Of a stretch of DNA of 64,000 nt, positions 6,647-63,477 are shown in pieces. The position numbers were made by a program, and so were the translations under genes. How positions within the stretch are numbered: position 1 is the stretch's first letter; each line of letters starts with the position of its first letter. The notes under the pieces were generated by a model that worked only from the letters and a program-made list of their open reading frames with translations, had not been told where the DNA came from and searched no databases. The DNA is taken from the NCBI RefSeq assembly GCF_014876185.1, contig NZ_JADALJ010000001.1, positions 806,001 to 870,000 of the forward strand. Direction: 5' to 3'. The DNA comes from Rufibacter sp. LB8. GTDB lineage: Bacteria > Bacteroidota > Bacteroidia > Cytophagales > Hymenobacteraceae.

Positions 6647-6686
6647 CTGTTTTCGGGCTCATTTTCAGAAATGAGCCCGAAAACTG
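6647..6686. repeat. Interspersed palindrome, copy 1
   Basis: The core arms are GTTTTCGGGCTCATTT and its complement around a TCAG loop. The outer CTG/CTG ends do not pair fully. With the copy at 6850 it occupies most of the 396-bp gap between cheC and speDE; the AT-rich stretch between the two holds nothing I recognise. Confidence 0.9.
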
Positions 6687-6849
6687 AAAGCCTTCGTTTA
6701 ATAAACATTTCGGTTTAACGCAAAAACATTAAAAGTAAACACTCCTTGTTAAGAGCCGGCTTGCACATTAGAAATTGCCATGTGACAAATTTCAATTGGA
6801 AAATAGTCCTGGGGTTACAAGCTCTAATGCGCTGAAGGCTTAGTTCAAA

Positions 6850-6895
6850 TTTCCGTTTTCGGGCTCATTTCTGGAAATGAGCCCGAAAACGGAAA
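6850..6895. repeat. Interspersed palindrome, copy 2
   Basis: The 46-bp palindrome has a CTGG loop in the opposite orientation to copy 1 and arms ending TTTCCG/CGGAAA. It lies 80 bp upstream of the speDE start. Confidence 0.9.
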
Positions 6896-6974
6896 GACGG
6901 CCTTTCTTTTCATTGCAGTATCTTTTTTGTTGCTTTGTGCGTCTGAAACAATAATTAGAATCAACAACAGCCTT

Positions 6975-8258
6975 ATGGATGCTTTAGGAAGACACATTCT
7001 GGTGGAGTTTTACAACTGCCAGCCAGAATTGATGAATGATGTGGTGCACATTGAGAACAGCATGGTGGCTGCCGCCGAAACGGCCGGGGCCACAGTCATT
7101 AACAGCACCTTCCATCATTTCTCGCCGTACGGGGTGTCTGGCGTGGTGGTAATCCAGGAAAGCCATTTGGCCATTCATACCTGGCCAGAATACGGGTACG
7201 CCGCCGTGGATTTGTTTACCTGCGGTGATTCGGTAGATCCCTGGGTTTCTTACAATTACTTAAAAGAAGCCTTCAAAGCCAGCCACGGTTCTTCCATGGA
7301 GTGCCGCCGGGGCCAACAAAGCCTCTTAAAGCGCACGGATTTCACTGTAGAAACCAGAGATACCGGCCAGGCCGTGGAGCAAGTGCCAACCTTCACCCGT
7401 GATGTCTGGTTCACGGAGCGGGACGAGAACATCGCGCTTTCTTTGAAGCACACCGGCAACCAACTCTACAAAAAGCAGTCGCCGTTCCAGAAAGTGGAGG
7501 TGTTTGAGACCCTGGCCTACGGCAACATGCTCACCCTGGACGGTATGGTGATGTGTACCCAGAAAGACGAGTATGTGTACCATGAGATGATCACGCACGT
7601 GCCCATGTTCAGCCACGGCAACGTGAAACGCGCTCTGGTCATTGGCGGCGGCGATGGCGGAACGGTAAGAGAGCTCCTTCGTCATGAAAGCATAGAAGAA
7701 GTGGTTCTGGTGGAGATTGATGAACTGGTGATTGAAGCCTGCAAAGCCCATTTGCCAGAGACCGCCAGCGCCTTTGACCACCCAAAACTCAAGCTGTTGG
7801 TGGAAGACGGCATCAAATACATTCAAGATTGCGCAGATAGTGCGTTTGATTTGATCATTGTGGATTCCGCTGACCCGGTTGGCCCCGGCGAAGGCTTGTT
7901 CACTGCTGAATTTTACGGCCAGGTACACCGTTGCCTCACGGCCAACGGCATCATGGTGACCCAAAGCGAATCGCCGAGGTTCAACACGTCGGTGTTTGTG
8001 GAGATTTATGATACGTACAAAGGCATCTTCGGGCAAGACAAGGTTTTCTGTTATCTGGCGGCCATTCCCACGTATCCTACCGGAACCTGGAGCTTCTCTT
8101 TCAGTGCCAAAGGAAATGCGGTGCCGTCTCAATTCAACAGAGAAGCCGCGGCAACTTTCTCAAAAGAGCAAAAACTGCGGTATTACAATGAGGACATCCA
8201 CACGGCCGCGTTTGCTTTGCCCAACTTCGTAAAAGACCTGCTTTCCACCAACGCCTAG
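6975..8258 (+). CDS. speDE: SpeD-SpeE fusion: S-adenosylmethionine decarboxylase / polyamine aminopropyltransferase
   Basis: The ATG at 6975 ([12 protein letters not shown]) is preferred over an upstream TTG at 6927. The N-terminal ~130 residues are a bacterial class 1b AdoMet decarboxylase. The self-cleavage site [11 protein letters not shown] contains the serine that becomes the pyruvoyl group, and the cysteine in FTCG is present. The rest is a spermidine-synthase-type aminopropyltransferase with the nucleoside-binding motif [13 protein letters not shown], the acid in VEIDELVI and the [13 protein letters not shown] active-site segment. One chain would thus make decarboxylated AdoMet and use it to convert putrescine to spermidine. 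The agmatinase-like gene follows after 2 bp. Confidence 0.93.
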
Positions 8259-8260
8259 TT

Positions 8261-9352
8261 ATGAGCCAGCATCCTATGAAATCTATGTGCGACTCCAAGC
8301 GCACCAAAATTGACTCTTTTGACCAAAACGGGGTAGGCGAGATTGGCAGCGGCCTGTTTGGGTTGCCTTTCACCGAGGAGGAATCTGAAGTGGTGGTGTT
8401 CCCCATTCCGTGGGAGGTGACCGTTTCATACAACGCCGGCACCGCCGACGGTCCGGCCGCCGTGCGCGACGCCTCACCGCAACTTGATCTCTTTGACCCT
8501 GAACTACCCAACGCCTGGCACCTGGGAATTCACATGCCGCAGATTCCGGAACAGTGGGAGCAGGAAAGCACGCGCCTACGTGAAAAGTCTGAAGCCTATA
8601 TCAACTGGCTGGAAAATGGGCAACCAGAAGGCGAAAACCATGAAGCCATTGTAGCCGAAATCAACCAGAAAGGCGAGGAACTGCTGCAATGGTCTAAGCA
8701 AGAAACGCTTAAGTACCTGGAGCAAGGTAAACTGGTAGGTGTTTTGGGCGGCGACCACAGCACGCCCCTCGGGTTTATGCACGCCCTGGCTGAAAAGCAT
8801 GAAGAATACGGGATTCTGCAGGTAGATGCCCACGCAGATTTGCGAAACGCCTATGAAGGCTTCACCTATTCGCACGCTTCCATCATGTTCAATGCCTTGA
8901 AGTTGCCGCAGGTCAAGAAATTGGTGCAGGTGGGCATACGTGATTTGTGTAACGCCGAAGCAGAACTGGTGAACCAGTCAAATGGGCGCATCACCACGTT
9001 TTATGACAGCTCTATTAAGGCCAAGCAGTATGAAGGCGGCTCCTGGCGGAAGCAATGCAAAAAAATCATCGCCCAGCTGCCGCAGAAGGTGTACATCAGT
9101 TTTGACATTGACGGCCTTGACCCCAAGCTTTGCCCCGGCACTGGAACGCCGGTACCGGGCGGTTTTGAGTTTGAAGAGGCAGTGTACCTGATCAAGGCGC
9201 TGGTAAAATCGGGCCGCGAGATCATTGGGTTTGACCTGTGCGAAGTGGCCCCCGGCGAAAGCGAGTGGAACGGCAACGTGGGCGCCCGGCTGCTGTACAA
9301 ACTCTGCTACTGGATGGCCGTATCTCAGAAAAGATTAGAGACAACTCACTAA
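8261..9352 (+). CDS. Agmatinase-like ureohydrolase
   Basis: This 363-residue member of the arginase/agmatinase family has the binuclear manganese ligands in GGDHSTP, QVDAHADLR and SFDIDGLDP. It starts 2 bp after speDE, so it is almost certainly co-transcribed. The likely reaction is agmatine to putrescine and urea, supplying the acceptor for the aminopropyltransferase. Arginase or formimidoglutamase activity cannot be excluded from sequence, but the operon context favours agmatine. An insertion after the N-terminal strand (about residues 90-145) is rich in Glu and Gln. Confidence 0.88.
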   Translation: MSQHPMKSMCDSKRTKIDSFDQNGVGEIGSGLFGLPFTEEESEVVVFPIPWEVTVSYNAGTADGPAAVRDASPQLDLFDPELPNAWHLGIHMPQIPEQWEQESTRLREKSEAYINWLENGQPEGENHEAIVAEINQKGEELLQWSKQETLKYLEQGKLVGVLGGDHSTPLGFMHALAEKHEEYGILQVDAHADLRNAYEGFTYSHASIMFNALKLPQVKKLVQVGIRDLCNAEAELVNQSNGRITTFYDSSIKAKQYEGGSWRKQCKKIIAQLPQKVYISFDIDGLDPKLCPGTGTPVPGGFEFEEAVYLIKALVKSGREIIGFDLCEVAPGESEWNGNVGARLLYKLCYWMAVSQKRLETTH

Positions 9353-9366
9353 CGTAACCTAGACCT

Positions 9367-9702
9367 ATGGGCTTCATCATTAAAATCATTATCACCGGCA
9401 TTGTCGCGCTGGTGCTGGCACAGTTCTTCCCGGGAGTGCACCTGGATGGCATAAGCAGCGGCATTTTGCTGGCTTTGGTGCTGGCCCTGCTGAACGCCTT
9501 TGTGCGGCCTGTTTTGGTGTTCTTAACCATTCCGGTGACCTTTCTGACCTTGGGCTTATTCCTGCTGGTGATCAACGCCATCATTCTGTACCTGGCAGAT
9601 TTCCTTTTAGATGGGTTCTCCGTGGATGGCATCATCACTGCCATTCTCTTCAGCTTGGTGTTATCAATTGTCACCTCCATCATTGACATGGTGAGAGGGT
9701 AA
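9367..9702 (+). CDS. Phage-holin-4-superfamily (YvlD-like) membrane protein
   Basis: This 111-residue protein is almost wholly hydrophobic, with about four membrane segments (IIITGIVALVLAQF, GILLALVLALLNAFV, VLVFLTIPVTFLTLGL and a C-terminal helix). The pattern LLNAFVRPVLVFLTIPVT is typical of PF04020. It starts 14 bp after the ureohydrolase gene. Despite the family name these are usually chromosomal proteins of unknown role, and no other phage gene is nearby. Confidence 0.82.
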   Translation: MGFIIKIIITGIVALVLAQFFPGVHLDGISSGILLALVLALLNAFVRPVLVFLTIPVTFLTLGLFLLVINAIILYLADFLLDGFSVDGIITAILFSLVLSIVTSIIDMVRG

Positions 9703-9718
9703 CTACAGTTGGTTTGGT

Positions 9719-9764
9719 TTTCCGTTTTCGGGCTCATTTCTGAAAATGAGCTCGAAAACGGAAA
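9719..9764. repeat. Interspersed palindrome, copy 3
   Basis: Arms TTTCCGTTTTCGGGCTCATTT pair with the right arm except for one C-to-T change (GAGCTCG). It lies just after the holin-like gene. Confidence 0.9.
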
Positions 9765-9915
9765 GTCTGCAAGCCTTTACATTTGTTTTGGTGCAGATCT
9801 GGCAGTAATCAGAATCCTGCAATTGATTTGAATTCTTTCTCAACAATAGCCTGGCCTTGCCGGGCTATTATTGTTTTATGCCAATCAGAATAGCAGAAAG
9901 AAAGTCGATTTTGGC

Positions 9916-9923
9916 TATTTTTG
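9916..9923 (+). promoter_or_regulatory. Possible -7 box of recQ
   Basis: TATTTTTG matches the Bacteroidetes TAnnTTTG -7 element, 17 bp before the preferred recQ ATG. No TTG box is seen at the right spacing, so support is weak. If it is real, the leader would be about 10 nt. Confidence 0.35.
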
Positions 9924-9940
9924 TAAAAATAGAAACAAGC

Positions 9941-12082
9941 ATGGGAGTTAGGGAAGCCAGGGAGGTGTTGAAGCTGTATTTTGGGTATGACCAGTTCAGG
10001 CCGGGGCAGGAGGAAATCATTTCCAATGTGCTGGCCAAGAAAGACACGGTGGTGCTCATGCCCACGGGCGGCGGGAAATCTGTGTGCTACCAGGTGCCCG
10101 GTTTGGTCATGCCCGGCATCAGCGTGGTGGTGTCGCCGTTGATTGCCCTCATGAAAGACCAGGTGGAAGCCCTGCAAGGAAACGGCGTGAACGCGGCTTT
10201 CCTGAACAGTTCCCAAACCTCCAAAGAGCAGCAGTTGATTGAGCAGCAGTGCTATGACGGGCGTTTGAAAATGCTCTACGTGTCCCCTGAAAAACTGCTT
10301 TCCCCGGGCTTTTTCTCCTTTCTGAAACAACTGCAGATTAATTTATTCGCCATTGATGAGGCGCACTGTATTTCGGCCTGGGGCCATGATTTCAGGCCAG
10401 AATACCTGCAATTGAAAAACCTTAAGCTGCAATTCCCAGAGATACCTGTCATTGCCTTGACAGCCACCGCTGATCGCCTGACTCAGAAAGACATTCATAC
10501 GCAGCTGTATTTACAAGACCCCAAAGTCTTCGTTTCGTCTTTTGACCGGCCCAATATCTACCTGCAGGTGCAGCCGGGCCAGAAGCGCATGGAAGCCATT
10601 TTAGACTTTCTGGAAGAGCGCCCTTTTCAGCCCGGCATTATCTATTGCCTCAGCAGGAAAGCGACGGAATCATTGGCGGCAAAACTGAAGGAAAAAAGCT
10701 ATAACGCCGATTACTACCATGCGGGCCTTTCTTCTAAGGAGCGGGACAGGGTGCAGGAGAAGTTCCTGCAAGACAACATCATGATCATGTGCGCTACCAT
10801 CGCCTTCGGTATGGGCATTGATAAGTCTAACGTGCGCTGGGTGATCCATTACAACTTGCCCAAAAACCTGGAAAGCTATTACCAGGAAATTGGCCGGGCC
10901 GGCCGTGACGGTGCTTCTGCTGAGGCCTTGCTTTTCCACAGTCTGGCCGATGTGATGACCCTGCGGGATATTATCTCCCAAGGCGATAATAGCAAGGAGC
11001 AGACCTTGTCTTTGGCCAAACTGGACCGCATGCTGCAATACGCTGAGAGCACCAGCTGCCGACGCAAGACCTTGATGCACTATTTTGGTGAGCCATTTGA
11101 CCAGAACTGCGGCAACTGCGACATCTGCGAAAATCCCCCTACCTCTTTCAACGGCACTGAGCTGGCCCAGAAAATACTATCGGCGGTAGCCAGAACCAAA
11201 GAAACCATTCCGGCCGCGCAGGTGGTGGACATTTTACGCGGTTCCAGAAACCAGCAAAGTTTGGCCAGAGGCTATGACCAACTCAAAACGTTTGGCGCTG
11301 GCAGAGACGTACCCGCCACCGACTGGCAACGCTATATCCACCAACTCATAAACCAAGGCTTGCTAGAAGTAGCCTATGATGAACACGCGGCACTTAAACT
11401 GAACAAAGCCAGCCAGGAGGTGCTGTTCAACGGCAAACCGGTGGAGTTGGTGAAATTCCAACCCATTGACCCCAAAGAAGAGAAAGAAAAACGCAGCAAA
11501 GGCAAATCTAGAAACCAGATGGAAGTGGCCCTGTTTGACCATCTTCGCCAGCTAAGGAAAGATTTGGCCCAGGAGCGCGGCATTCCGCCGTACCTGGTGT
11601 TCAATGACAACACGCTGCAGGAAATTGCGGAGATGCGCCCAACCAACCGGCCCGCTTTTCTTTCCATTTCCGGGGTGGCGCAAGCCAAGTATGAACAATA
11701 CGGCGAACTGTTCATCAATGCCATCTTAGGTTTCCTGGGTAAACAAAGCGAACAGCAGCAGGCCCGTATGAAAGGAACCACGCATTTGGTCACCTATGAA
11801 ATGCTCCGCCAAGGGCTAACCCCTGAAGAAATATCCGCGCAGCGTCAGATTCAGGTGGCCACAGTGTATTCGCATCTGGCTACGTTGTACCAGCAAGGCT
11901 ACGAGTTGGACCTGAAGCCCTATCTTTCTGATTGGGAATATGACAAAATACACCAGGCCATTCAACAGATAGGACAAACCATCACCATGAAACCTATCTT
12001 TGATTTACTGGAAGGGGAGATTGACTACCTTAAAATCAGGTTGGCCATTGGCCGCTACCACCGTGAAACCCAGCAAGCATAA
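9941..12082 (+). CDS. recQ: ATP-dependent DNA helicase RecQ
   Basis: The ATG at 9941 (MGVREAREVLKLYFGY) fits the family start better than the in-frame start at 9857; the result is 713 residues. Walker A is PTGGGKS and the DEAH box is IDEAHCISAWGHDFRPEY. The helicase C domain includes GRAGRDG, and the RQC zinc site includes CRRKTLMHYFGE and CGNCDIC. An HRDC domain follows (about residues 520-595). A C-terminal helix-turn-helix-like helicase-associated domain follows, with GLTPEEISAQRQIQVATVYSHL. RecQ unwinds DNA 3'-5' in recombination and fork repair. Confidence 0.95.
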   Translation: MGVREAREVLKLYFGYDQFRPGQEEIISNVLAKKDTVVLMPTGGGKSVCYQVPGLVMPGISVVVSPLIALMKDQVEALQGNGVNAAFLNSSQTSKEQQLIEQQCYDGRLKMLYVSPEKLLSPGFFSFLKQLQINLFAIDEAHCISAWGHDFRPEYLQLKNLKLQFPEIPVIALTATADRLTQKDIHTQLYLQDPKVFVSSFDRPNIYLQVQPGQKRMEAILDFLEERPFQPGIIYCLSRKATESLAAKLKEKSYNADYYHAGLSSKERDRVQEKFLQDNIMIMCATIAFGMGIDKSNVRWVIHYNLPKNLESYYQEIGRAGRDGASAEALLFHSLADVMTLRDIISQGDNSKEQTLSLAKLDRMLQYAESTSCRRKTLMHYFGEPFDQNCGNCDICENPPTSFNGTELAQKILSAVARTKETIPAAQVVDILRGSRNQQSLARGYDQLKTFGAGRDVPATDWQRYIHQLINQGLLEVAYDEHAALKLNKASQEVLFNGKPVELVKFQPIDPKEEKEKRSKGKSRNQMEVALFDHLRQLRKDLAQERGIPPYLVFNDNTLQEIAEMRPTNRPAFLSISGVAQAKYEQYGELFINAILGFLGKQSEQQQARMKGTTHLVTYEMLRQGLTPEEISAQRQIQVATVYSHLATLYQQGYELDLKPYLSDWEYDKIHQAIQQIGQTITMKPIFDLLEGEIDYLKIRLAIGRYHRETQQA

Positions 12083-12119
12083 AAAAAGGAGGCCAGTAGA
12101 AACTGGCCTCCTTTTTTTA
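12081..12119. terminator. Bidirectional terminator between recQ and the S8 protease gene
   Basis: AAAAAGGAGGCCAGT and ACTGGCCTCCTTTTT form a 15-bp stem with a short loop and A/T tracts on both sides. The flanking genes converge on it. Confidence 0.9.
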
Positions 12120-12133
12120 TAAATTCTGATTGA

Positions 12134-14411: not shown

Positions 14412-14465
14412 AGAGGTTCCGTTTTCGGGCTCATTTTCAGAAATGAGCCCGAAAACGGAACCTCT
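14412..14465. repeat. Interspersed palindrome, copy 4, extended to 54 bp
   Basis: Two perfect 25-bp arms flank a TCAG loop. The outer AGAGGTTCC/GGAACCTCT is unique to this locus and still perfectly complementary. Confidence 0.93.
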
Positions 14466-15450: not shown

Positions 15451-15504
15451 TCTATTTCCGTTTTCGGGCTCAATTTCAGAAATGATGCCAAAAACGGAAA
15501 TAGA
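15451..15504. repeat. Interspersed palindrome, copy 5, decayed core with perfect outer arms
   Basis: The outer TCTATTTCCG/CGGAAATAGA is perfectly complementary and unique to this locus. The inner stem has mismatches (GGGCTCAATTT against AAATGATGCC). The total span is again 54 bp. It lies in the 321-bp gap before the phospholipase-like gene; that gap otherwise holds only the pirin terminator and AT-rich sequence. Confidence 0.85.
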
Positions 15505-19263: not shown

Positions 19264-19303
19264 ACGTTTTGGGGCTCATTTCTGGAAACGGAGCCAAAAA
19301 CGC
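19264..19303. repeat. Interspersed palindrome, copy 6, decayed
   Basis: The left arm GTTTTGGGGCTCATTT is intact and is of the G/C subtype. The right arm has changes (GGAGCCAAAAACG). It starts 4 bp after the DUF2062 stop. Confidence 0.8.
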
Positions 19304-20044: not shown

Positions 20045-20087
20045 CCGTTTTCGTGCTCATTTTCAGAAATGAGCCCGAAAACGGGAA
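20043..20087. repeat. Interspersed palindrome, copy 7
   Basis: It directly abuts the DUF4920 terminator. The core arms pair except for one change (CGTGCTC in the left arm), and the loop is TCAG. Confidence 0.88.
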
Positions 20088-26205: not shown

Positions 26206-26247
26206 TGCGTTTTGGGGCTCATTTCTGAAAATGAGCCCCAAAACGCA
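26206..26247. repeat. Interspersed palindrome, copy 8 (G/C subtype)
   Basis: The arms TGCGTTTTGGGGCTCATTT and their complement pair perfectly around CTGA. Compared with the main type, the C-G pair after GTTTT is a G-C pair on both sides. Confidence 0.92.
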
Positions 26248-27856: not shown

Positions 27857-27896
27857 CCGTTTTCGGGCTCATTTTCAGAAATGAGCCCGAAAACGG
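27857..27896. repeat. Interspersed palindrome, copy 9
   Basis: This perfect 40-bp core has a TCAG loop and ends CCG/CGG. It lies about 77 bp upstream of the mqo start. Confidence 0.92.
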
Positions 27897-33124: not shown

Positions 33125-33164
33125 CTGTTTTAGGCTTCATTTTCAGAAATGAGCCCGAAAACAG
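33125..33164. repeat. Interspersed palindrome, copy 10
   Basis: The left arm is altered (TTTTAGGCTTC) and the right arm GAGCCCGAAAACAG is intact. The loop is TCAG. It lies just past the tRNA-Asp terminator. Confidence 0.85.
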
Positions 33165-34483: not shown

Positions 34484-34527
34484 TTCTGTTTTCGGGCTCA
34501 TTTCTGGAAATGAGCCCGAAAACAGAA
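34484..34527. repeat. Interspersed palindrome, copy 11
   Basis: It begins 3 bp after the accA stop. TTCTGTTTTCGGGCTCATTT and its complement pair perfectly around CTGG. The outer C-G of the main type is T-A here on both sides (CTG/CAG). Confidence 0.92.
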
Positions 34528-37580: not shown

Positions 37581-37620
37581 TCGTTTTTGGGCTCATTTTT
37601 GAAAACGAAGGCAAAAACGA
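37581..37620. repeat. Interspersed palindrome, copy 12, decayed
   Basis: TCGTTTTTGGGCTCATTTTTG is followed by an eroded right arm (CGAAGGCAAAAACGA). It is the first of two copies in the gap between the acyltransferase gene and smc. Confidence 0.82.
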
Positions 37621-37690: not shown

Positions 37691-37744
37691 AATATTCCCG
37701 TTTTTGGGCTCATTTCTGCAAATGAGCCCAAAAACGGGAATATT
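37691..37744. repeat. Interspersed palindrome, copy 13, 54 bp (T/A subtype)
   Basis: Two perfect 25-bp arms flank CTGC. The outer AATATTCCC/GGGAATATT is unique to this locus. The pair after GTTTT is T-A on both sides (GTTTTTGGG...CCCAAAAAC). Confidence 0.93.
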
Positions 37745-41406: not shown

Positions 41407-41452
41407 TTCTGTTTTTGGGCTCGTTTTCAGAATTGAGCCCGAAAACAGGAAA
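41407..41452. repeat. Interspersed palindrome, copy 14
   Basis: TTTCTGTTTTTGGGCTCGTTT pairs with a slightly changed right arm (TTGAGCCCGAAAACAG), so this copy has unpaired positions in the stem. It lies upstream of smc. Confidence 0.85.
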
Positions 41453-41514: not shown

Positions 41515-41600
41515 AAACCTTTGTTGGTGTTCTCACCAACAAACCCATCAGCCAGCGCTATTCTGCTTGTTGGTGAGAACACCAACAAGAGCAAAGGTTT
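41515..41600. repeat. TTGTTGGTGTTCTCACC inverted repeat
   Basis: The left arm AAACCTTTGTTGGTG... (41515-41542) is repeated as its complement at 41566-41600 with a 6-base insertion. Each arm itself contains TTGGTG/CACCAA. It lies downstream of the hypothetical gene at 41616 on the minus strand and could form a large hairpin. Confidence 0.82.
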
Positions 41601-43773: not shown

Positions 43774-43812
43774 GCGTTTTCGGGCTCGTTTCTCAAATCT
43801 AAGCCAAAAACG
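43774..43812. repeat. Interspersed palindrome, copy 15, decayed
   Basis: The left arm GCGTTTTCGGGCTCGTTT is readable. The right arm is eroded (AAATCTAAGCCAAAAACGG). It begins 10 bp before the rsmE start codon, so it would fall in the 5' leader. Confidence 0.75.
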
Positions 43813-47370: not shown

Positions 47371-47415
47371 TTCCGTTTTTGGCTTCATTTCCGGAAATGA
47401 GCCCGAAAACAGGAA
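47371..47415. repeat. Interspersed palindrome, copy 16
   Basis: The left arm carries the altered TTTTTGGCTTC form; the right arm GAGCCCGAAAACAGG is of the main type. The loop is CCGG. It follows the POT terminator. Confidence 0.85.
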
Positions 47416-49032: not shown

Positions 49033-49072
49033 CTGTTTTGGGGCTCATTTCTGAAAACGAAGCCAAAAACGG
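49033..49072. repeat. Interspersed palindrome, copy 17
   Basis: GTTTTGGGGCTCATTTCTG is followed by a partly eroded right arm (CGAAGCCAAAAACGG). It starts 5 bp after the lipoprotein stop. Confidence 0.8.
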
Positions 49073-51339: not shown

Positions 51340-51385
51340 TTCCCGTTTTTGGCTTCATTTTAAGAAATGAGCCCGAAAACGGGAA
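51340..51385. repeat. Interspersed palindrome, copy 18
   Basis: Outer TTCCCG/CGGGAA pairs. The left arm is altered (TTTTTGGCTTC) and the right arm is of the main type. It lies between the groES upstream region and the secG terminator. Confidence 0.87.
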
Positions 51386-56695: not shown

Positions 56696-56797
56696 GGCAT
56701 ATCTGCGCGTTTCTGACAGAATGGCAGGCAGAATTTTACACAAATCCTGCTGAGGTTGCTTTGGAAATCTTTCTCTGAATTTCTACTTAGGTCTTTA

Positions 56798-58087
56798 CTA
56801 GGCCAATACTTTTAAAATAGCGGCGGCTTTCAAGAGGCATTCTTCATACTCCTGCACCGGGTCTGAGTCATAGGTAATGGCGCTGCCCACCTCAAACGAA
56901 AGGTAACCGTTGCTGGCATTGTACTGCAAACTCCTGATAACCACATTGAAGTCAAAATCTCCGATGGGCAAAAAATAGCCCAGGCTGCCGGAGTAAAGTC
57001 CGCGTTTGGTGTTTTCATACAGCTCAATCAGTTCCAGGGCTTTTATTTTGGGTGCGCCCGTCATGCTGCCCATGGGAAAGGCGGCTTTGATGGCGTCAAT
57101 TGCGTTTACCTCTGCTGGAAGGCGCGCTGTGACCGTGGAAATCATCTGCCAGACATATTGGAACCCGTACAGCCCGAACAATTCCACTACCTGCACGGTG
57201 CCCGTGGCGGCCACGCGGTTCAGGTCGTTCCGGACCAGGTCCACAATCATCATGTTCTCGGCGCGCTCTTTCTCACTATTGGCCAAGGCTTGTTTCTGAC
57301 TTTCATCTTCCTTAGGCGTTTTCCCGCGCGCAATGGTGCCTTTGATGGGCTGCGAAATCAACAAATCACCTTCTTTCTTGAGAAACCGTTCTGGGCTGGC
57401 GCACAAAAGATATTTCTCCTGAAGCTTCAGAAAACCGGCGAAGGGCGTAGGGGAGGCGGCGTTCAGTTTCTGGAAAAGGGCCACCGGTTCAACGGCTGCG
57501 TTCTCGGCGTAAAATTCCTGGCAGTAATTGACTTCGTACACATCACCTTCCAGAATGTGCTGCCTAAGCTTTTCAACGGTTTCCAGGTATTTTTCTTTTG
57601 GCACACGCGCCTGCGTTTTCGGGCTCGTTTCTGAAAATGAGGCCGAAAACGGAAAATTATTTATTTGCTCAAGGATTTCTTTTGGATCAACTAAGTCAGA
57701 ATGAAGGGTGACTTCCTGGCCTTTCCACTGCAGCCAAACGTCTGGGTGAAAAAAATACAACTCCGGAAAACCTATGTGGTCAGGGTTCTGGCTGGAGAGT
57801 TTTTCTAAGCTGTTTTTGAGATCAAAGGTGAAGTACCCGAATACCGGTTTGTGCTGTTGAGTAAGTTGGGCGCGGGATAATTCTTCCCAAGTGGTAAAAG
57901 TGTTCTTGCTGAAAGCTTTCAGCTGCACGCCCAACATATTCTCAAAAGCACCATGGCGGTACGCCACGGCATTCGGTTCATAAAAGGCTACTACCTCATG
58001 GTTTGCCGCCGCCCAGGCCAACGCTTTCTGTTTCCAGCCTTCCACAGGCAGGGGCAAAGCATCAAAAGGAATGGCGAGTTGAAGCAT
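56798..58087 (-). CDS. pabB: Aminodeoxychorismate synthase component I-like protein (PabB family)
   Basis: The start is MLQLAIPFDALPL at 58087, because a promoter lies just upstream; a longer frame would start inside a repeat. The 429-residue product has chorismate-enzyme motifs QPIKGTIARG, MIVDLVRNDLNRVA, GSMTGAPKIKALELIE and a C-terminal GSAITYDSDP. It makes aminodeoxychorismate for folate when paired with a glutaminase. A copy of the interspersed palindrome is embedded in frame (57611-57653), adding FPFSASFSETSPKTQAR before the conserved core. Confidence 0.92.
   Translation of the reverse strand: MLQLAIPFDALPLPVEGWKQKALAWAAANHEVVAFYEPNAVAYRHGAFENMLGVQLKAFSKNTFTTWEELSRAQLTQQHKPVFGYFTFDLKNSLEKLSSQNPDHIGFPELYFFHPDVWLQWKGQEVTLHSDLVDPKEILEQINNFPFSASFSETSPKTQARVPKEKYLETVEKLRQHILEGDVYEVNYCQEFYAENAAVEPVALFQKLNAASPTPFAGFLKLQEKYLLCASPERFLKKEGDLLISQPIKGTIARGKTPKEDESQKQALANSEKERAENMMIVDLVRNDLNRVAATGTVQVVELFGLYGFQYVWQMISTVTARLPAEVNAIDAIKAAFPMGSMTGAPKIKALELIELYENTKRGLYSGSLGYFLPIGDFDFNVVIRSLQYNASNGYLSFEVGSAITYDSDPVQEYEECLLKAAAILKVLA
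57611..57653. repeat. Interspersed palindrome, copy 19, inside pabB
   Basis: CGTTTTCGGGCTCGTTT with a CTGA loop and a GAGGCCGAAAACGG right arm lies wholly in the pabB coding sequence. It is read in frame on the minus strand as SASFSETSPKTQA and does not break the gene. Confidence 0.9.
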
Positions 58088-58104
58088 TCTTAGAAGTAGA
58101 AAAG

Positions 58105-58138
58105 CAAAGATAGGAAGTTTGAAAAGGTTGTGACTCAA
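58105..58138 (-). promoter_or_regulatory. Candidate promoter of pabB
   Basis: TTG and TATCTTTG are separated by 23 bp on the minus strand. Initiation would be about 10 nt before the ATG at 58087. This position excludes the longer frame's start. Confidence 0.5.
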
Positions 58139-58139
58139 A

Positions 58140-58175
58140 AGACCTCGTAGCGTCTGGAAGACCTGCGAGCGTCTG
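58140..58175. repeat. AGACCTGCGAGCGTCTG tandem repeat pair
   Basis: Two 17-bp units AGACCT(C/G)(G/C)(T/G)AGCGTCTG lie 2 bp apart (58140-58156 and 58159-58175). Each has AGAC/GTCT ends. Confidence 0.7.
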
Positions 58176-58201
58176 CGCCAACTGCATTCATAAAAAGTAA
58201 T

Positions 58202-58238
58202 GACCCTCACCCTAACCCTCTCCCAGAGGGAGTGGGGA
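58202..58238. repeat. CCTCACCCTAACCCTCTCCC repeat
   Basis: GACCCTCACCCTAACCCTC followed by TCCCAGAGGGAG resembles a dispersed repeat known in many bacterial genomes. It sits between the tandem pair and palindrome copy 20. Confidence 0.6.
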
Positions 58239-58248
58239 CTTCAAAGAT

Positions 58249-58294
58249 TTTCTGTTTTCGGGCTCATTTCTGGAAATGAGCCCGAAAACGGAAA
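58249..58294. repeat. Interspersed palindrome, copy 20
   Basis: The core arms pair perfectly around CTGG; outer TTTCTG/CGGAAA has one mismatch. It is the third repeat family in the 272-bp gap between pabB and the zinc-ribbon gene. Confidence 0.91.
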
Positions 58295-58307
58295 ACCAGT
58301 TAAGCAG

Positions 58308-58333
58308 AAAAGGATGGCGTGGGCCATCCTTTT
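58308..58333 (-). terminator. Terminator of the zinc-ribbon/Nif3 operon
   Basis: AAAAGGATGGC and GCCATCCTTTT flank a 4-base loop, 27 bp past the zinc-ribbon gene stop. Confidence 0.65.
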
Positions 58334-58359
58334 CTTTTGTGCAATGAAAGTAGAAATAC

Positions 58360-59097
58360 TTATTGGGCTATAGCTTTGATCTCCACGTCGGCCAAGATTC
58401 TACCACAGTGCTCGCACACCGTGATTTTTTTCTTGGAGGCAATCTCTGACTGACGTTGCGGGGGAACGGTGTTGAAACATCCGCCGCAGGCGTCACGCTT
58501 CACCGCTACCACGGCCAGGCCGTTGCGCACGTTCTTTCTGATTCTGTTGTAAGCGAACAAAAGACGGTCTTCAATCTGCTTGATGGCCTCTTCTTTCTGG
58601 TCGTTCAGTTTTTTCTCGTCGTCTTCGCTTTCCTGCACCATCACCTGCAATTCGCTGTTTTTGGTGTTCAGGTCTTTCTGACGCTCTTCCAGACGGTTCT
58701 TGGTGTCCTGGATATCGGCTATTTTCTGCTCAATCTGGAAGTTGGCCTCCCTGATTTTCTTTTCGTTGATCTGGATCTCCAGCTTCTGCAACTCCACCTC
58801 TTTGGTGATGGCGTCAAACTCACGGTTGTTGCGGACGTTTTCCTGCTGCTCCTCGTACTTCTTGATGAGCTTCTCGGCGTCTTTGATGCCCTGTTTGCGG
58901 TTGGCGATGCTCTGCTGCAGCTCGGCAATCTCTTCGTCAAACTTGCTTACGCGTACTTGGTAGCCGGCAATCTCATCTTCCAGGTCCCGCACCTCTTCCG
59001 GCAGGTCACCTCTAACTTGTAGAATTTGGTCTAATTGAGAATCTAAGCTCTGAAGTCTTAGAAGTGCGTCTAACTTACTTGCTACAGTACTTTCCAT
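58360..59097 (-). CDS. Coiled-coil protein with C4 zinc ribbon
   Basis: This 245-residue protein is one long antiparallel coiled coil (about residues 15-185). A C-terminal zinc ribbon follows, with four cysteines in CGGCFNTVPPQRQ and VCEHCGRIL. This is the PF02591/CT398-like architecture. It lies 7 bp after the Nif3-like gene; the pair is commonly adjacent in bacteria. Homologues have been linked to flagellar or type III gear in Chlamydia, but the role here is unknown. Confidence 0.9.
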   Translation of the reverse strand: MESTVASKLDALLRLQSLDSQLDQILQVRGDLPEEVRDLEDEIAGYQVRVSKFDEEIAELQQSIANRKQGIKDAEKLIKKYEEQQENVRNNREFDAITKEVELQKLEIQINEKKIREANFQIEQKIADIQDTKNRLEERQKDLNTKNSELQVMVQESEDDEKKLNDQKEEAIKQIEDRLLFAYNRIRKNVRNGLAVVAVKRDACGGCFNTVPPQRQSEIASKKKITVCEHCGRILADVEIKAIAQ

Positions 59098-59104
59098 GAA
59101 TTAT

Positions 59105-60202
59105 TTAGCTGTGTCTTACGGGATTGGTGTCAATGCCTGACAAATCGACTGCAAAATTAGGAAAACTTTTTGTAAGTATATCATAAAAAAGCTCCTTGGT
59201 GTAAACTTCGCTCTCATAGTGGCCAACGTCTACCAGCGCCATTTGGCGGTTGGCCTCAAAGAACTCGTGGTATTTCAAATCGGCGGTCAGGAAAACCTGC
59301 GCGCCACTGGCCTTGGCCTGCCGGGTAAGAAAGCTGCCGGCCCCACCGCATACTGCCACTTTTTGAATAGGCTGGTCTGGCCAGTCCGTATGTTTAAAAG
59401 TAGTTAGCTGCAGTTTCTCCTTAATATATCTCGTGAATTCCTCGCCTGACAGGGCCTCTGGCAGTTCACCCACCATGCCGGCGCCCACTTCCTGGTTTTG
59501 GTTTTCCAGCGAGACCAGGTAATGCGCCACTTCTTCATACGGGTGCGCCTGTAGCAAGGCTTTCATAATCTGCGCCTCCTTGAACGCCGGGAAGATCACC
59601 TCTATTTTATTCTCCACGGTTTCTTCGGTTTTGCAGGGCTCGCCAATGTGGGGGTTGGCTTTCGCCGAAGGCGTGAACCTGCCCGTGCCCGTGATCCGGA
59701 AACTGCAGTCTGAGTAATCGCCAATCTGTCCGGCCCCGGCCTGGTGCAGCGCAGCCAACACTTTCTCGGTGTCCTCCAGCGGTACGTAGGTTTCCAGTTT
59801 GGTCAACGTTTGGGATTTGGGGGCCAAAATCCGAAGCTTGGTTAAGCCCAGTTTCTCGCAGAGCTTCGCGTTCACGCCGTTATGCACATGGTCTAAATTG
59901 GTGTGGCACGCAAAGATGGCAATCTGGTGGGTGATGGCTTTTAAAAGAATGCGCTCCACCGGCGTCTTGCCCGTCAGGCTTTTGAGCGGCTTAAAGATAA
60001 CGGGGTGGTGCGCCACAATCAGATTACAGCCGCGGTCTATGGCTTCCTGCACCACTTCTAAGGTACAGTCCAGGGTCACCAGCACGCGCGTGACGGTCAT
60101 CTCCTGGTCACCCACTTGCAAGGTGGCGTTGTCATATGATTCCTGGTAGGCAGGGGGGGCGTAGCGCTCCAGGGCCTGCACCACTTCTTTGATTTTGGTC
60201 AT
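59105..60202 (-). CDS. Nif3-like dinuclear metal-centre protein
   Basis: This 365-residue protein has the Nif3/YbgI ligand blocks IVAHHPVIFKPLKSL, IFACHTNLDHVHNG and the C-terminal VDVGHYESEVYTKE. An inserted middle domain (about residues 135-230, with AHPYEEVAHYLV) is the PII-like insertion of long Nif3 proteins. It is hexameric and may be a metal-dependent hydrolase or GTP cyclohydrolase-like; the function is not settled. It reads divergently from lpxK. Confidence 0.93.
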   Translation of the reverse strand: MTKIKEVVQALERYAPPAYQESYDNATLQVGDQEMTVTRVLVTLDCTLEVVQEAIDRGCNLIVAHHPVIFKPLKSLTGKTPVERILLKAITHQIAIFACHTNLDHVHNGVNAKLCEKLGLTKLRILAPKSQTLTKLETYVPLEDTEKVLAALHQAGAGQIGDYSDCSFRITGTGRFTPSAKANPHIGEPCKTEETVENKIEVIFPAFKEAQIMKALLQAHPYEEVAHYLVSLENQNQEVGAGMVGELPEALSGEEFTRYIKEKLQLTTFKHTDWPDQPIQKVAVCGGAGSFLTRQAKASGAQVFLTADLKYHEFFEANRQMALVDVGHYESEVYTKELFYDILTKSFPNFAVDLSGIDTNPVRHS

Positions 60203-60213
60203 GGGCGTTGTTT

Positions 60214-60256
60214 CAAATCTACCTGCGCAAAGAAAGCTAATTTTCCCCTACTTTTG
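60214..60256. promoter_or_regulatory. Divergent promoter region, Nif3-like gene and lpxK
   Basis: TAGATTTG on the minus strand (60214-60221) and TACTTTTG on the plus strand (60249-60256) face outward. Initiation from the latter would fall just at the lpxK ATG (60263), suggesting a near-leaderless transcript. Neither has a clear TTG partner. Confidence 0.42.
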
Positions 60257-60262
60257 TGCGTC

Positions 60263-61306
60263 ATGAAGTTGCTGTTGCCTCTTGTAAAGTTGGGATTGAT
60301 GCCTTTTGCGTGGCTCTACGGCGGCGTGGTGGCCGTGCGCAATTTACTTTACGACCATGGCGTGTTCAAAAGTTACCGCGCACCCATTCCGGTGGTCTGT
60401 GTGGGCAACCTGAGCGTGGGCGGCACCGGCAAAACTCCGCAGGTAGAATTCCTGGCCAGGCTTTACCAGCACAAAAAAATAGCCATCCTGAGCCGAGGCT
60501 ACAAACGAAAAACCACAGGCTTTGTCTTAGCTGATGAAACTGCTTCACCGGATACGTTGGGCGATGAACCCTTCCAGTATGTCCACAATCTGCCCTGGGC
60601 CAAAGTAGCGGTCTGCGAAAAGCGGGCGCACGGAATCCAGGAGCTGCTTAGATTATTTCCAGACCTGGACCTAATTTTGTTGGACGATGCTTTTCAGCAC
60701 CGCGCCGTCACAGCTTCCCGCTATCTTCTGCTCACTGATTATAATAAGCCTTTCAACCAAGATTATCTTTTACCAGCGGGCCGTCTGCGCGAACACCGGA
60801 AAGGGGCTAAGCGCGCTGATGCCGTAGTGGTCACCAAATGCCCTGAAGGTTTGAATTTTGAAGACCGTGCGCAACTGACTCTAAACTTGGCGCCTTACCT
60901 CCAGCCGGGCACGCCTGTTTTCTTCTCGCAGATAGTTTACGCGCGCCCTGTACCATTCTTGCCCGGCCGTACGTTAAGCACCCAGGTGATAGCTGTGACC
61001 GGCATTGTCAACCCAAAACCGTTTCTAAACCATCTGTCAACGCTTGGTGGCACGGTGGTCCACCATTTCAATTTCCCGGACCATGCCGCGTACACGGTGC
61101 AACCGGTACAGGAGATTGTAGACTTCTGCCTGAAGCAACCGGGCCAGGTAAGTGTGGTCATGACCCAGAAAGACGCGGTGAAATGGCAAACCAGGGAGTT
61201 ACAGGGCATCTGGCAGGCGGTGCCGATTTTTTATATACCTATCACCAATCAATTTGCGCCGCATGACCCAACGTTTGAAGAAGTGGCTACCAGTTGGCTC
61301 GGTTAA
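60263..61306 (+). CDS. lpxK: Tetraacyldisaccharide 4'-kinase
   Basis: The ATG at 60263 (MKLLLPLVKLG) is preferred over a TTG nine bases upstream. The 347-residue protein has an N-terminal membrane-associating helix. Walker A is VGNLSVGGTGKTPQ, then AILSRGYKRKT, LLDDAFQHRAV and ITGIVNP-like sequence (VTGIVNPKPF) follow. It phosphorylates the lipid A precursor at the 4' position on the inner membrane. The lptE lipoprotein gene for LPS transport is in the same window. Confidence 0.95.
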   Translation: MKLLLPLVKLGLMPFAWLYGGVVAVRNLLYDHGVFKSYRAPIPVVCVGNLSVGGTGKTPQVEFLARLYQHKKIAILSRGYKRKTTGFVLADETASPDTLGDEPFQYVHNLPWAKVAVCEKRAHGIQELLRLFPDLDLILLDDAFQHRAVTASRYLLLTDYNKPFNQDYLLPAGRLREHRKGAKRADAVVVTKCPEGLNFEDRAQLTLNLAPYLQPGTPVFFSQIVYARPVPFLPGRTLSTQVIAVTGIVNPKPFLNHLSTLGGTVVHHFNFPDHAAYTVQPVQEIVDFCLKQPGQVSVVMTQKDAVKWQTRELQGIWQAVPIFYIPITNQFAPHDPTFEEVATSWLG

Positions 61307-61335
61307 CATGCTTCGGCAATTAATTCTTACTTTTG
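61303..61335 (+). promoter_or_regulatory. Candidate promoter of the porin gene
   Basis: TACTTTTG (61328-61335), with TTA rather than TTG 22 bp upstream, overlaps the lpxK stop region. It covers the TTG start candidate at 61333. Confidence 0.38.
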
Positions 61336-61338
61336 ACT

Positions 61339-63270
61339 GTGAATTGTATTAAGCGTATTGCCGCGGCAATAATCATATGGGCGGCCACCGCCAATCTGGC
61401 CCAGGCGCAGATCATAGATGACTCTACCAAGGCAATCTATGGGTCGGCCACCACTTTAATTATTAGGGAAGCCGACATCTTTAAGGGAAACCTTACGCCG
61501 GTGCGCATTGACACCGCCCTGACCAACCTGCAAAGCATCAGGCACTGGTATTATGATTCCAGCTTGTACCAGGATTTGGGCAATATTGGCACCGCTTCAC
61601 AGCCGCTTTTCTGGCGCATGCCCACCGTTTTAGGAGCCCGCCTGGGGAGGAACGCCTTTGACCGCTATGCCGTCAACACCGCCACCGTGGAGTTCTATGA
61701 CACCAAATCGCCGCACACGTTCCTGAATTATGTGCAGGGCGGTTTGGGTGAGTCAATTTTCAGAACCAAGCACACCCGCAACATTGGGCCAAACTGGAAC
61801 GTGGGCATTGGCTATGAACGTCTAGGGTCTGAGCGGCAGTTTGGGCAGGTAGATCCTTCAGACAATGCCCTGGTCAGTCATTACGGCTTGCAGGCCTTCA
61901 CGCATTATTTCAGCAAGAACGACAGGTACCGGATCATGGCCATTTATGCCCACACCAGCCATGACCATATAGAGTCTGGAGGTGTGCAACCCAAACCTGG
62001 CCAATCTCCCAAAGAATTGCTTTCGCTCACCGGCCAACCCGTGTGGCTGAGCACCGCTGTTACAGATGAGAAACGAACCTCTATCAGGGCCACACAATGG
62101 TATAAATTGATAGGTCCGGGGCTGCAGCTGTACCATACCGTTGACGCATTTGACCAGGCTAATAAATTCACAGACGTTGACCTGAAGGGAAAGAAAGATT
62201 CCATCGTTTTCTACCCTAGAGCCTTGTTAGACACAGCCCTTACGCAGGACAATGCCCTATACTGGCAAGTAGAGAACACCTTTGGTTTAATGGGCAGCAC
62301 CAAGTATTTTGTGTACCGGGCCTACGCCAAACGCCGTGACGGCGAATACCGGTTACGTGCGCGGGGAGCCAACTATGTTCCCACCCGCGGAATAAATGAT
62401 AGCCTCACAGGCGTTTACATAGGCGGTACCAACCGCACCATCAAAGACAATTTTATTGGCGGCGAGGCCCAGTTCCGGCTCCGGAATGATATTTATGTCA
62501 CCACCAACGCAGAGTTCATGCTGGGAGAAGGCGATTACCTGATCAATGCCCAGGCCCGTTATAAATTCCTGACGGTACGCCAAACCAGGGCTTCTTACTC
62601 GCCCACCTTAACCCAGCAACTGGTGCAGAGCAACCATTTCGCCTGGAACAATGACTTTGAGAACATCACCTCCAACCAAACGGCCGCGGTACTGGAATCA
62701 CAGATTAGAAACCATTTTCTTTCGGGCCAGGTCCAGTTCACCAACCTTCGCAATTACGTCTATTACCAAGACTCCCTAAACGGCGATTGGGCCCAACCGG
62801 CCCAGGTAAGCGGCAACACAGATTTACTGCAAGTCAGTTTTAGGCACCGCATGCAGTTGAAATTCTTTGTGTTGGACAACACCGTTTTCTACAACGCCGT
62901 GGGCGGGAACGAAGTGATCAGAATGCCGGAATGGTACGTGCTCTCCAAAGCCTATGTGCAGACACCCATGTTCAAGTCGGCTATATTTGTGCAGGCAGGG
63001 GTGGAGATGAACTGGCATTCCAGCTATTTTGCCGATGGGTACATGCCCGTCACGCAGCAGTTCCACCTGCAGAACAGCTTTAACGTCACCCGCTACCCAA
63101 CCCTGGACCTCTTCCTGAACACCGACATCAAGAACCTCAACATCTTCCTGAAGCTCAGCCATGTCAACAACGTGGTGAACAGCTGGGAACCCGGTTACTA
63201 CACCACACCTAATTACATCGCCAACCCGTTCAGCTTCCTCTTCGGCCTGAAATGGAATTTCTACGATTAA
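61339..63270 (+). CDS. Putative porin (Porin_10-like outer-membrane protein)
   Basis: The start is uncertain: GTG 61339 is chosen because TTG 61333 overlaps a -7-like element. The signal peptide is NCIKRIAAAIIIWAATANLAQAQ. The 643-residue product is rich in aromatic residues in alternating beta strands. It carries the Bacteroidetes putative-porin pattern (SPHTFLNYVQGGLGE, RNIGPNWNVGIGYERLGSERQF). It ends in an aromatic strand, FLFGLKWNFYD, as in outer-membrane barrels. The substrate is unknown. Confidence 0.85.
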   Translation: MNCIKRIAAAIIIWAATANLAQAQIIDDSTKAIYGSATTLIIREADIFKGNLTPVRIDTALTNLQSIRHWYYDSSLYQDLGNIGTASQPLFWRMPTVLGARLGRNAFDRYAVNTATVEFYDTKSPHTFLNYVQGGLGESIFRTKHTRNIGPNWNVGIGYERLGSERQFGQVDPSDNALVSHYGLQAFTHYFSKNDRYRIMAIYAHTSHDHIESGGVQPKPGQSPKELLSLTGQPVWLSTAVTDEKRTSIRATQWYKLIGPGLQLYHTVDAFDQANKFTDVDLKGKKDSIVFYPRALLDTALTQDNALYWQVENTFGLMGSTKYFVYRAYAKRRDGEYRLRARGANYVPTRGINDSLTGVYIGGTNRTIKDNFIGGEAQFRLRNDIYVTTNAEFMLGEGDYLINAQARYKFLTVRQTRASYSPTLTQQLVQSNHFAWNNDFENITSNQTAAVLESQIRNHFLSGQVQFTNLRNYVYYQDSLNGDWAQPAQVSGNTDLLQVSFRHRMQLKFFVLDNTVFYNAVGGNEVIRMPEWYVLSKAYVQTPMFKSAIFVQAGVEMNWHSSYFADGYMPVTQQFHLQNSFNVTRYPTLDLFLNTDIKNLNIFLKLSHVNNVVNSWEPGYYTTPNYIANPFSFLFGLKWNFYD

Positions 63271-63272
63271 GG

Positions 63273-63477
63273 TTTTGGAATTTGGAAATTTGAAGATGAA
63301 GAGATTTGAAAATGACGTAAGGAATTAATGATACAATTTCCGTTTTGGGGCTCATTTCTGGAAATGAGCCCCAAAACGGAAATTGTTATTGATCTTCAAA
63401 TCTCCTAATTCCCACATCTCCACATTTTCAAATCTTCAAATTTCCACATCTTCCAATTTCCACATCTTCAAATTTAA
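63273..63477. repeat. AGATTTGAAAATG-type inverted tract enclosing a palindrome
   Basis: The left arm (63273-63314, TTTGAAGATGAAGAGATTTG) and the right arm (63390-63477, repeated CTTCAAAT and CCACATCTTC) are complementary in type. The interspersed palindrome at 63333-63386 sits in the centre. A simple version of this tract, without the insert, is at 55146. Confidence 0.75.
63333..63386. repeat. Interspersed palindrome, copy 21, 54 bp (G/C subtype)
   Basis: Two perfect 25-bp arms flank CTGG. Outer ACAATTTCC/GGAAATTGT is locus-specific. The pair after GTTTT is G-C on both sides. Confidence 0.93.

What the first reader, a model, noticed from the sequence alone, without database searches (positions are those of the whole stretch)
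6647..63386. A palindrome with 21 copies in 64 kb shows paired substitutions that keep the stem
The core GTTTTCGGGCTCATTT and its complement recur between genes about every 3 kb. The base pair after GTTTT is C-G in most copies, G-C at 26206 and 63333, and T-A at 37691. In each case both arms change together. This points to selection on a hairpin or to arm-to-arm correction, not to neutral decay. Both orientations occur (TCAG or CTG loops). The element has no obvious coding content and fits no repeat family that I can name.
Basis: seen in the sequence. Interest (0 to 1): 0.72.

Follow-up and report, generated by a model that had tools for sequence, protein, structure and literature searches.

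The report
Gene-end palindromes rewritten in place
A genus of bacteria carries many copies (about 1,800 in this genome) of a 36-base DNA palindrome, mostly just after its genes; copies stay at the same sites in related species while their sequence changes, and one arm is sometimes copied into the other, in one case carrying along the end of a neighbouring gene.

Summary
The repeat is real: 21 copies in the window, about 1,800 per genome (334 in 864 kb; none in the reversed control). Paired changes are partly as described: of 12 window copies departing from C-G after GTTTT, 4 are paired and 8 are not; most core positions do not covary within the genome.

The larger finding: all 14 genus genomes drawn carry this 16+4+16 palindrome, 45 of 46 others none. 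Orthologous gaps agree in occupancy (49 both, 5 one-sided, 41 neither; hold-out 33/3/23), and distances to stop codons agree within 3 nt far above permutation. So copies are inherited in place while stems change. At orthologous sites both-arm changes exceed shuffles, most in unique flanks (40 vs 8.0; hold-out 21 vs 5.0).

Mismatches show no G-U preference on the transcribed strand (326 vs 308); ordinary terminator-like hairpins do (72 vs 17). This favours DNA arm-to-arm copying (template switching) over RNA selection. In one copy a gene end conserved in 16 genomes stands inverted on the far side. Why copies are kept, and how the stem dialect switched genome-wide, is unknown.

The parts
6649..6684 (.). 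palindrome copy, identical arms, loop TCAG
6855..6890 (.). palindrome copy, identical arms, loop CTGG, 5-nt complementary flank
9724..9759 (.). palindrome copy, 1 arm difference
14412..14465 (.). palindrome copy 14421-14456, identical arms, with 9-nt complementary flanks
15451..15504 (.). palindrome copy 15460-15495, 4 arm differences, 9-nt complementary flanks
19266..19301 (.). palindrome copy, 5 arm differences
20047..20082 (.). palindrome copy, 1 arm difference, convergent gap
26209..26244 (.). palindrome copy, identical arms, G-C variant on both arms
27859..27894 (.). palindrome copy, identical arms
33127..33162 (.). palindrome copy, 3 arm differences
34488..34523 (.). palindrome copy, identical arms, just after the stop codon of an accA-like gene
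37583..37618 (.). palindrome copy, 4 arm differences, convergent gap beside an SMC gene
37691..37744 (.). palindrome copy 37700-37735, identical arms, T-A variant on both arms, 9-nt complementary flanks, 3' of the SMC gene
   Evidence: copies also stand 3' of SMC in G001, G007 and G013
41411..41446 (.). palindrome copy, 3 arm differences
43776..43811 (.). palindrome copy, 5 arm differences
47375..47410 (.). palindrome copy, 3 arm differences
49035..49070 (.). palindrome copy, 4 arm differences, convergent gap
51345..51380 (.). palindrome copy, 3 arm differences
57615..57650 (.). palindrome copy, 2 arm differences; falls inside a predicted ORF (56798-58210, minus)
58254..58289 (.). palindrome copy, identical arms
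63333..63386 (.). palindrome copy 63342-63377, identical arms, G-C variant on both arms, 9-nt complementary flanks

Best explanation
These are old, genus-specific DNA palindromes (GTTTT, 11 nt, 4-nt loop, 11 nt, AAAAC) that sit mostly just past gene ends and are inherited at fixed sites with few gains or losses (shown for the pairs compared). When a replication fork passes, a nascent strand can fold on the quasi-palindrome and copy one arm from the other (quasipalindrome template switching; inferred). This makes the arms identical in one step, sometimes runs past the repeat and writes an inverted copy of the unique flank on the other side, and may invert the loop. That accounts for the paired substitutions without an RNA hairpin. 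The repeats are probably kept because a DNA-binding factor or DNA topology at gene ends, above all between convergent genes, uses them; change in that factor could explain why species differ in stem dialect at the same sites (inferred, not tested).
For: Genus restriction: G000 and the 13 genus relatives drawn all have the old-dialect pattern (15 to 963 copies); of 46 family members outside the genus 45 have 0 and one has 1. Fixed sites: orthologous gaps 49 both, 2 and 3 one-sided, 41 neither; hold-out 33, 2, 1, 23; G000 against G001 18, 4, 3, 12. Within tandem gaps alone 22, 0, 2, 21 and 17, 1, 1, 9. Distance to the stop codon within 3 nt in 24 of 53 and 7 of 17 comparisons; permutation means 4.4 and 1.5, maxima 13 and 6. 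Dialect: arms of CA/CG type 635 of 754 in G000, 4 of 670 in G001. Changes on both sides, paired in both species: core 24 vs 10.5 (sd 2.8, maximum 20), flank 1-6 40 vs 8.0 (2.7, 15), flank 7-14 19 vs 9.3 (2.8, 21); hold-out 13 vs 7.5 (2.3, 15), 21 vs 5.0 (2.1, 11), 18 vs 7.0 (2.5, 15). Flank runs of 7 or more 39 of 334 vs 3.2, of 10 or more 11 vs 0.13, 23 of the 39 in the 74 copies with identical arms; identical arms 74 vs 36 permuted, one or two differences 84 vs 134. G-U 326 vs A-C 308 in the core and 251 vs 230 in the flank; hold-out 65/63 and 58/50; control hairpins 72 vs 17. A gene end coding PDW-stop, conserved in 16 of 16 genomes, is mirrored across the copy only in G000. Loop opposed to arm orientation in 62 of 175 scoreable copies. 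Copies per gap: convergent 80 of 89, tandem 197 of 408, divergent 30 of 83.
Against: Most arm pairs in G000 are unlike, and positions 9 and 12 agree less than chance, so copying is rare or something favours unlike arms. In the hold-out the core excess lies within the range of the shuffles (13; maximum 15), and so does flank 7-14 in the first set (19; maximum 21). G000/G001 shows no excess (core 16 vs 15.1, flank 7 vs 6.4, 11 pairs). No flank run of 7 or more in G008 (10 copies) or G004 (15 copies). A minority look like real terminators: T-run beyond the stem on the 3' side in 30 of 488 tandem copies against 9 of 488 mirrored A-runs; 9 of 36 against 2 of 36 when the flank run is 7 or more. The G-U control uses short stems with exactly one mismatch, where each mismatch may matter more than in a 16-bp stem. 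Loop inversion between orthologs is not in excess (2 of 41, 1.6 expected). Gap length was not controlled in the occupancy tables. No strain-level or experimental data show a switching event. The DNA-binding factor is a guess.
Confidence: 0.6

Rival explanations
1. The copies are RNA hairpins (bidirectional terminators or 3' mRNA-protecting stems) and the paired changes are ordinary compensatory evolution.
For: Strong 3' and convergent bias; T-rich beyond and A-rich before; T-run after long flank stems in 9 of 36 tandem copies; orthologous flank stems changed in pairs; separate terminators somewhat rarer in convergent gaps with a copy (74 of 326 strand scans against 30 of 84, p 0.017).
Against: No G-U over A-C preference on the transcribed strand in core or flank, while terminator-like hairpins outside the family in the same four genomes show 72 to 17. 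Tandem gaps with a copy have separate terminators as often as gaps without (51 of 328 vs 48 of 294), and in those 51 the terminator lies before the copy in 38. Only 30 of 488 tandem copies are followed by a T-run. If selection is too weak to prefer G-U it should be too weak to drive double changes (argument).
Confidence: 0.2
2. They are REP elements moved by a RAYT (Y1 transposase), and paired stems come from copying of subfamilies.
For: Y1_Tnp genes in 15 of 16 genus genomes, those read having motifs such as NHLH...YIHQNP, which match Bacteroidetes subclass 2.6 of PMC6006769; symmetric C-type (58 copies) and G-type (22 copies) look like subfamilies.
Against: Sites are shared between species with few gains or losses. 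No enrichment beside the genes: of 13 read, a copy within 400 nt upstream 3, downstream 4, both 2; background per gene 0.25-0.38, 0.46-0.53, 0.13-0.21. G007 has 671 copies and no Y1_Tnp match at E 0.001. No GTAG or CGTC tag. Copying of a master cannot make flanks that are unique yet self-complementary.
Confidence: 0.1
3. The copies inserted into the loops of pre-existing hairpins, which would give complementary unique flanks from the start.
For: Some flank stems followed by T-runs look like terminators split by a copy.
Against: Long flanks go with identical arms (23 of 74, against 1 of 44 with five arm differences), which insertion does not predict. Flank stems differ between species at the same site, each self-complementary. 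The gene end with stop codon is mirrored outside the gene only in G000. 25 of 36 tandem long-flank copies have no T- or A-run.
Confidence: 0.12
4. Each arm is a protein half-site, and both arms follow the protein's changing preference (selection on DNA binding alone).
For: Dialects hold on both arms across a genome; deficit of copies with the rarer base on both arms at positions 9 and 12; the T and A tracts stay in the consensus of all seven genomes sampled.
Against: Cannot explain complementarity of unique flanks up to 14-16 nt. May act together with template switching.
Confidence: 0.2

Closest known systems
REP elements, GTAG and CGTC families (PMC3733652; passages seen)
   Same: short palindromes, some families with thousands of copies, mostly intergenic, between tandem and convergent genes, downstream of coding regions; CGTC families lack a dedicated transposase
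   Different: no GTAG/CGTC tag at the foot; 16-nt arms with a 4-nt loop; mostly single; sites shared between species while stems change; no G-U excess (that paper notes frequent GT pairing)
Atypical structures beside Bacteroidetes subclass 2.6 TnpA-REP-like genes (PMC6006769; section 13 and passages seen)
   Same: same phylum; Y1 genes with matching motifs occur in the genus
   Different: no enrichment of this palindrome beside those genes here; a genome without a detected Y1 gene keeps 671 copies. I did not compare with the structures themselves
Quasipalindrome correction / template switching (PMC8794818 passages; PMC3820800 abstract; PMC8604942 and PMC7202029 starts of abstract in listings)
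   Same: arm homogenisation, extension of identity between arms, loop or spacer inversion
   Different: those texts treat rRNA stems, yeast assays, yeast genes and E. coli hot spots; here a footprint over a dispersed family of about 1,800 copies in a genome, reaching into unique flanks
DNA uptake sequence dialects in Neisseriaceae (PMC3630211; abstract seen)
   Same: thousands of copies per genome with species dialects
   Different: here a palindrome, seldom in ORFs (22 of 329); no uptake receptor known

Membership tests
REP (GTAG/CGTC) | short palindrome in more than 100 copies, extragenic, downstream of genes | tested here: met
REP (GTAG/CGTC) | GTAG/GTGG or CGTC tag at the stem foot | tested here: not met
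   consensus at -4 to -1 is TTCC, mirrored as GGAA on the other side
REP (GTAG/CGTC) | head-to-head dimers predominate | tested here: not met
   33 of 367 successive copies lie under 250 nt apart; spacing only, orientation not scored
REP mobilised by RAYT | copies flank the RAYT gene | tested here: not met
   no enrichment over background; only 13 of 33 loci gave an ORF that my motif filter accepted, and loci are about 3.2 kb
REP mobilised by RAYT | gain and loss of sites between relatives | tested here: not met
   5 of 95 and 3 of 59 gaps differ (G007/G013); G000/G001 7 of 37
Intrinsic terminator | T-run after the stem | tested here: not met
   30 of 488 tandem copies; met in a minority
Intrinsic terminator | RNA pairing constraint (G-U preferred to A-C) | tested here: not met
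   positive control
Quasipalindrome template switching | all-or-none arm homogenisation | tested here: met
Quasipalindrome template switching | identity extended beyond the original arms | tested here: met
Quasipalindrome template switching | loop inversion | tested here: inconclusive
   62 of 175 opposed in G000; no excess between orthologs (2 of 41)
Quasipalindrome template switching | replication-strand bias | tested here: inconclusive
   A-arm left/right 76/52 vs 49/58 by sign of GC skew, p 0.049
DNA uptake sequence | bound by an uptake receptor, raises transformation | not testable with these tools
   none

The most novel reading that the evidence does not exclude
A class of self-maintaining DNA palindromes: vertically inherited at fixed gene-end sites across a genus, repaired arm-to-arm by template switching, and re-written genome-wide to a new stem dialect without moving, by a trans-acting factor or by copying between dispersed copies.
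Probability: 0.3. Interest if true: 0.88.

Novelty: new variant of a known kind. Interest (0 to 1): 0.7.

Why it matters
Paired substitutions are commonly read as proof that an RNA structure is functional. Here is a bacterial repeat family with about 1,800 copies in one genome in which paired changes exceed chance while the RNA-pairing signature is absent, against a control that works in the same genomes. It is a natural test bed for how much apparent compensatory evolution is made by DNA template switching. It also poses a clean question: how did so many dispersed short sites change dialect in one lineage while staying in place?

Tried and rejected
Rfam: only a tRNA in the window at gathering threshold. 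RAYT mobility: rejected as the present driver. Naming the organism through the second contig: only weak matches to Hymenobacteraceae plasmids. One search mixed loci of other species into the count through a loading error; its numbers are not used (one search replaces it). One search, a first ortholog search in gaps between BLAST blocks only, missed copies inside alignments and is superseded. One search's RAYT scan read one strand only; one search repeats it on both. G000/G001 paired-change test: few and diverged pairs, no excess. Loop inversion between orthologs: no excess. Replication-strand test: marginal. The second gene-end case (383-aa gene): nearest relative 35% identical, loci not given, so not pursued. 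The relaxed scan used from then on admits some chance hits (reversed-sequence control 39 vs 345 in G000, 15 vs 196 in G001, 10 vs 106 in G007, 10 vs 121 in G013); one hold-out pair is plainly such a hit and was left in. In gaps with several copies searches used only the best flank match, kept if 9 or more of 20, which favours similar flanks (6 of the 47 pairs). One search placed 329 of 334 copies; the other 5 lacked a neighbouring gene in the stretch. Gene models are a simple codon-usage ORF picker, not a curated annotation.
Full report
WHAT IS THERE. The window holds 21 copies of a 36-nt palindrome, 16-nt arm, 4-nt loop, 16-nt arm, with the arm GTTTTCGGGCTCATTT or a variant. Twenty lie outside predicted ORFs, one inside. 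In 864 kb of the genome (window, 39 stretches of 20 kb of the chromosome, 20 kb of the second contig) there are 334 copies at up to 4 mismatches to a degenerate model; the same scan of the reversed sequence finds none at up to 5 mismatches and one at 6. That scales to about 1,800 per genome. The 20 kb of the second contig has none at that cut and one in the relaxed scan.

HOST. One window protein carries a Por secretion tail. The best named loci for one other window protein are from Sabulibacter ruber and Rufibacter roseus (87 and 89% identity). The contig length of G008 C36 equals that of the R. roseus record, so the genus of the G handles is most likely Rufibacter in the wide sense (inference; records near the own genome are left out).

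THE PAIRED CHANGES IN THE GENOME. At the base after GTTTT the arms agree in 0.56 of 334 copies against 0.41 expected, with G on both arms in 26. At positions 8 and 10 they agree about as often as chance, at 9 and 12 less often; the rarer base stands on both arms in 7 and 6 copies, about 19 and 18 expected from the marginals. So there is an A-type arm (CGGGCTCATTT) and B-type arms (near TGGCTTCGTTT), and many copies are A/B. Identical arms are nevertheless twice as common as by permutation, 74 against 36, with too few at one or two differences (84 against 134).

THE FLANKS. Outside the repeat the flanks are unique but complementary to each other: runs of 7 or more in 39 of 334 copies (3.2 permuted), 10 or more in 11 (0.13), up to 14 nt. 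Of the 39, 23 are among the 74 copies with identical arms. Runs of 7 or more also exceed permutation in G001 (7 vs 0.6), G007 (14 vs 0.2), G013 (14 vs 0.2) and G006 (4 vs 0.2), but there are none in G008 (10 copies) and G004 (15 copies). New stretches of G007 and G013 repeat it (10 of 70 and 9 of 72, 0.2 each permuted).

A GENUS-WIDE FAMILY AT FIXED SITES. With the old-dialect pattern, G000 and the 13 genus relatives drawn have 15 to 963 copies; of 46 family members outside the genus 45 have none and one has 1; the reversed pattern finds none. G001 was not drawn there but has 143 of the 16+4 form in 400 kb. G000 itself has 35 of the old pattern but 962 forward arms of its own dialect, against 0 to 13 per strand in 15 genus relatives. 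Gaps of 60 nt or more between reciprocal-best neighbours agree in occupancy: G007/G013 49 both, 2 and 3 one-sided, 41 neither; hold-out 33, 2, 1, 23; G000/G001 18, 4, 3, 12. Of the 21 genome pairs, 9 reach p below 0.05; the rest are small. Copies lie within 3 nt of the same distance from the stop codon in 24 of 53 G007/G013 comparisons (4.4 permuted) and 7 of 17 for G000/G001 (1.5). Hence the G000 dialect appears to have replaced an older one without the sites moving. Arms of the older type prevail in G001, G006, G007, G008 and G013; G004 is mixed (12 of 30 arms). Dialects are not strictly one per species: G007 and G013 share one.

PAIRED CHANGES BETWEEN SPECIES. In 47 orthologous pairs (G007/G013), positions changed on both sides and paired in both species number 24 (core), 40 (flank 1-6) and 19 (flank 7-14), against 10.5, 8.0 and 9.3 when right-hand bases are dealt anew; the largest of 500 shuffles reach 20, 15 and 21. 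A hold-out of 32 pairs from new sequence, same thresholds, gave 13, 21 and 18 against 7.5, 5.0 and 7.0, largest 15, 11 and 15. So flank 1-6 is beyond all shuffles in both sets, core and flank 7-14 in one set each. In 11 G000/G001 pairs there is no excess (16 vs 15.1, 7 vs 6.4, 2 vs 3.3). One G007/G013 pair has taagaagccc/gggcttctta in one and taagaatgcc/ggcattctta in the other around the palindrome.

RNA OR DNA. If stems were kept as RNA, leftover mismatches on the transcribed strand should prefer G-U to A-C. They do not: core 326 to 308, flank 251 to 230 in tandem gaps of four genomes; isolated mismatches inside helices 107 to 103 and 19 to 20; hold-out 65 to 63 and 58 to 50. Terminator-like hairpins outside the family, in the same genomes, give 72 to 17; in tandem gaps 35 to 4 on the sense strand and 3 to 12 on the antisense strand. 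These control stems are short and hold exactly one mismatch, so selection per mismatch may be stronger there. Copies do not stand in for terminators in tandem gaps (51 of 328 gaps with a copy have a separate one, 48 of 294 without), and where both occur the terminator comes first in 38 of 51. In convergent gaps separate terminators are somewhat rarer with a copy (74 of 326 against 30 of 84 strand scans). A minority with long flanks and T-runs probably are terminators.

ONE CASE READ CLOSELY. At G000 C1:572221 the copy lies 3 nt after the stop of a 310-aa gene. The far flank agcttaccagt is the reverse complement of actggtaagct, which is the gene's last bases, stop and spacer. All 16 genus genomes end this gene in PDW-stop, so the coding side is taken as the older. 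In 11 of the 16 a copy at my threshold follows the stop, 3 to 45 nt on; in 5 none was found. Only in G000 does the mirrored run reach the stop codon. G010, G007 and G005 have their own different self-complementary flanks of 8-9 nt there. Two further copies run over a stop codon (G000 C1:3647319, and position 151643 of the joined G013 stretch).

MECHANISM. Template switching between imperfect inverted repeats makes arms identical and inverts spacers (PMC8604942, start of abstract; PMC8794818, passages) and extends identity between arms (PMC3820800, abstract). It explains identical arms, unique mirrored flanks and the one-way copy. It does not by itself explain why copies stand at gene ends or how a whole genome changed dialect; a DNA-binding factor or topology at convergent ends is my guess.

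PRINT. In the papers listed by my searches I saw none on this family: Rufibacter with palindromic, RAYT with Bacteroidetes (48), Hymenobacter/Pontibacter with palindromic repeats (80), terminator and concerted-evolution terms (55), REP with gyrase and convergent (61), uptake-sequence dialects (62), template switching and compensatory change (51), quasipalindrome terms (46, 56, 81). The library holds open-licence papers only, and of most listed papers I saw the listing alone.

Noticed in passing
G000 contig C2:1-20000 (L126): The stretch of the 155-kb contig carries almost none of the repeat (0 in the strict scan, 1 in the relaxed scan, about 8 expected from chromosomal density), so it may be young or foreign DNA.
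   Followed up: partly
window 6927-8258: One ORF matches S-adenosylmethionine decarboxylase and spermidine synthase in a single frame, next to an arginase-family gene at 8261-9352.
   Followed up: no
L001-L006 and L127-L153: Y1_Tnp genes, 0 to 6 per genus genome, several with NHLH...YIHQNP motifs; their own repeat partner, if any, is probably not this palindrome.
   Followed up: partly
G000 chromosome stretches: The A-type arm lies left more often where GC skew is positive (76/52) than where it is negative (49/58), p 0.049; a possible replication-strand effect.
   Followed up: partly
window 41521-41588 and 12079-12120: Two perfect inverted repeats of 22 and 19 nt that do not belong to the family; the second lies between converging genes and looks like an ordinary terminator.
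   Followed up: no
G009 C1:4320891-4321133: A fragment of an SMC gene with a stop codon inside, about 4 kb from the intact gene.
   Followed up: no
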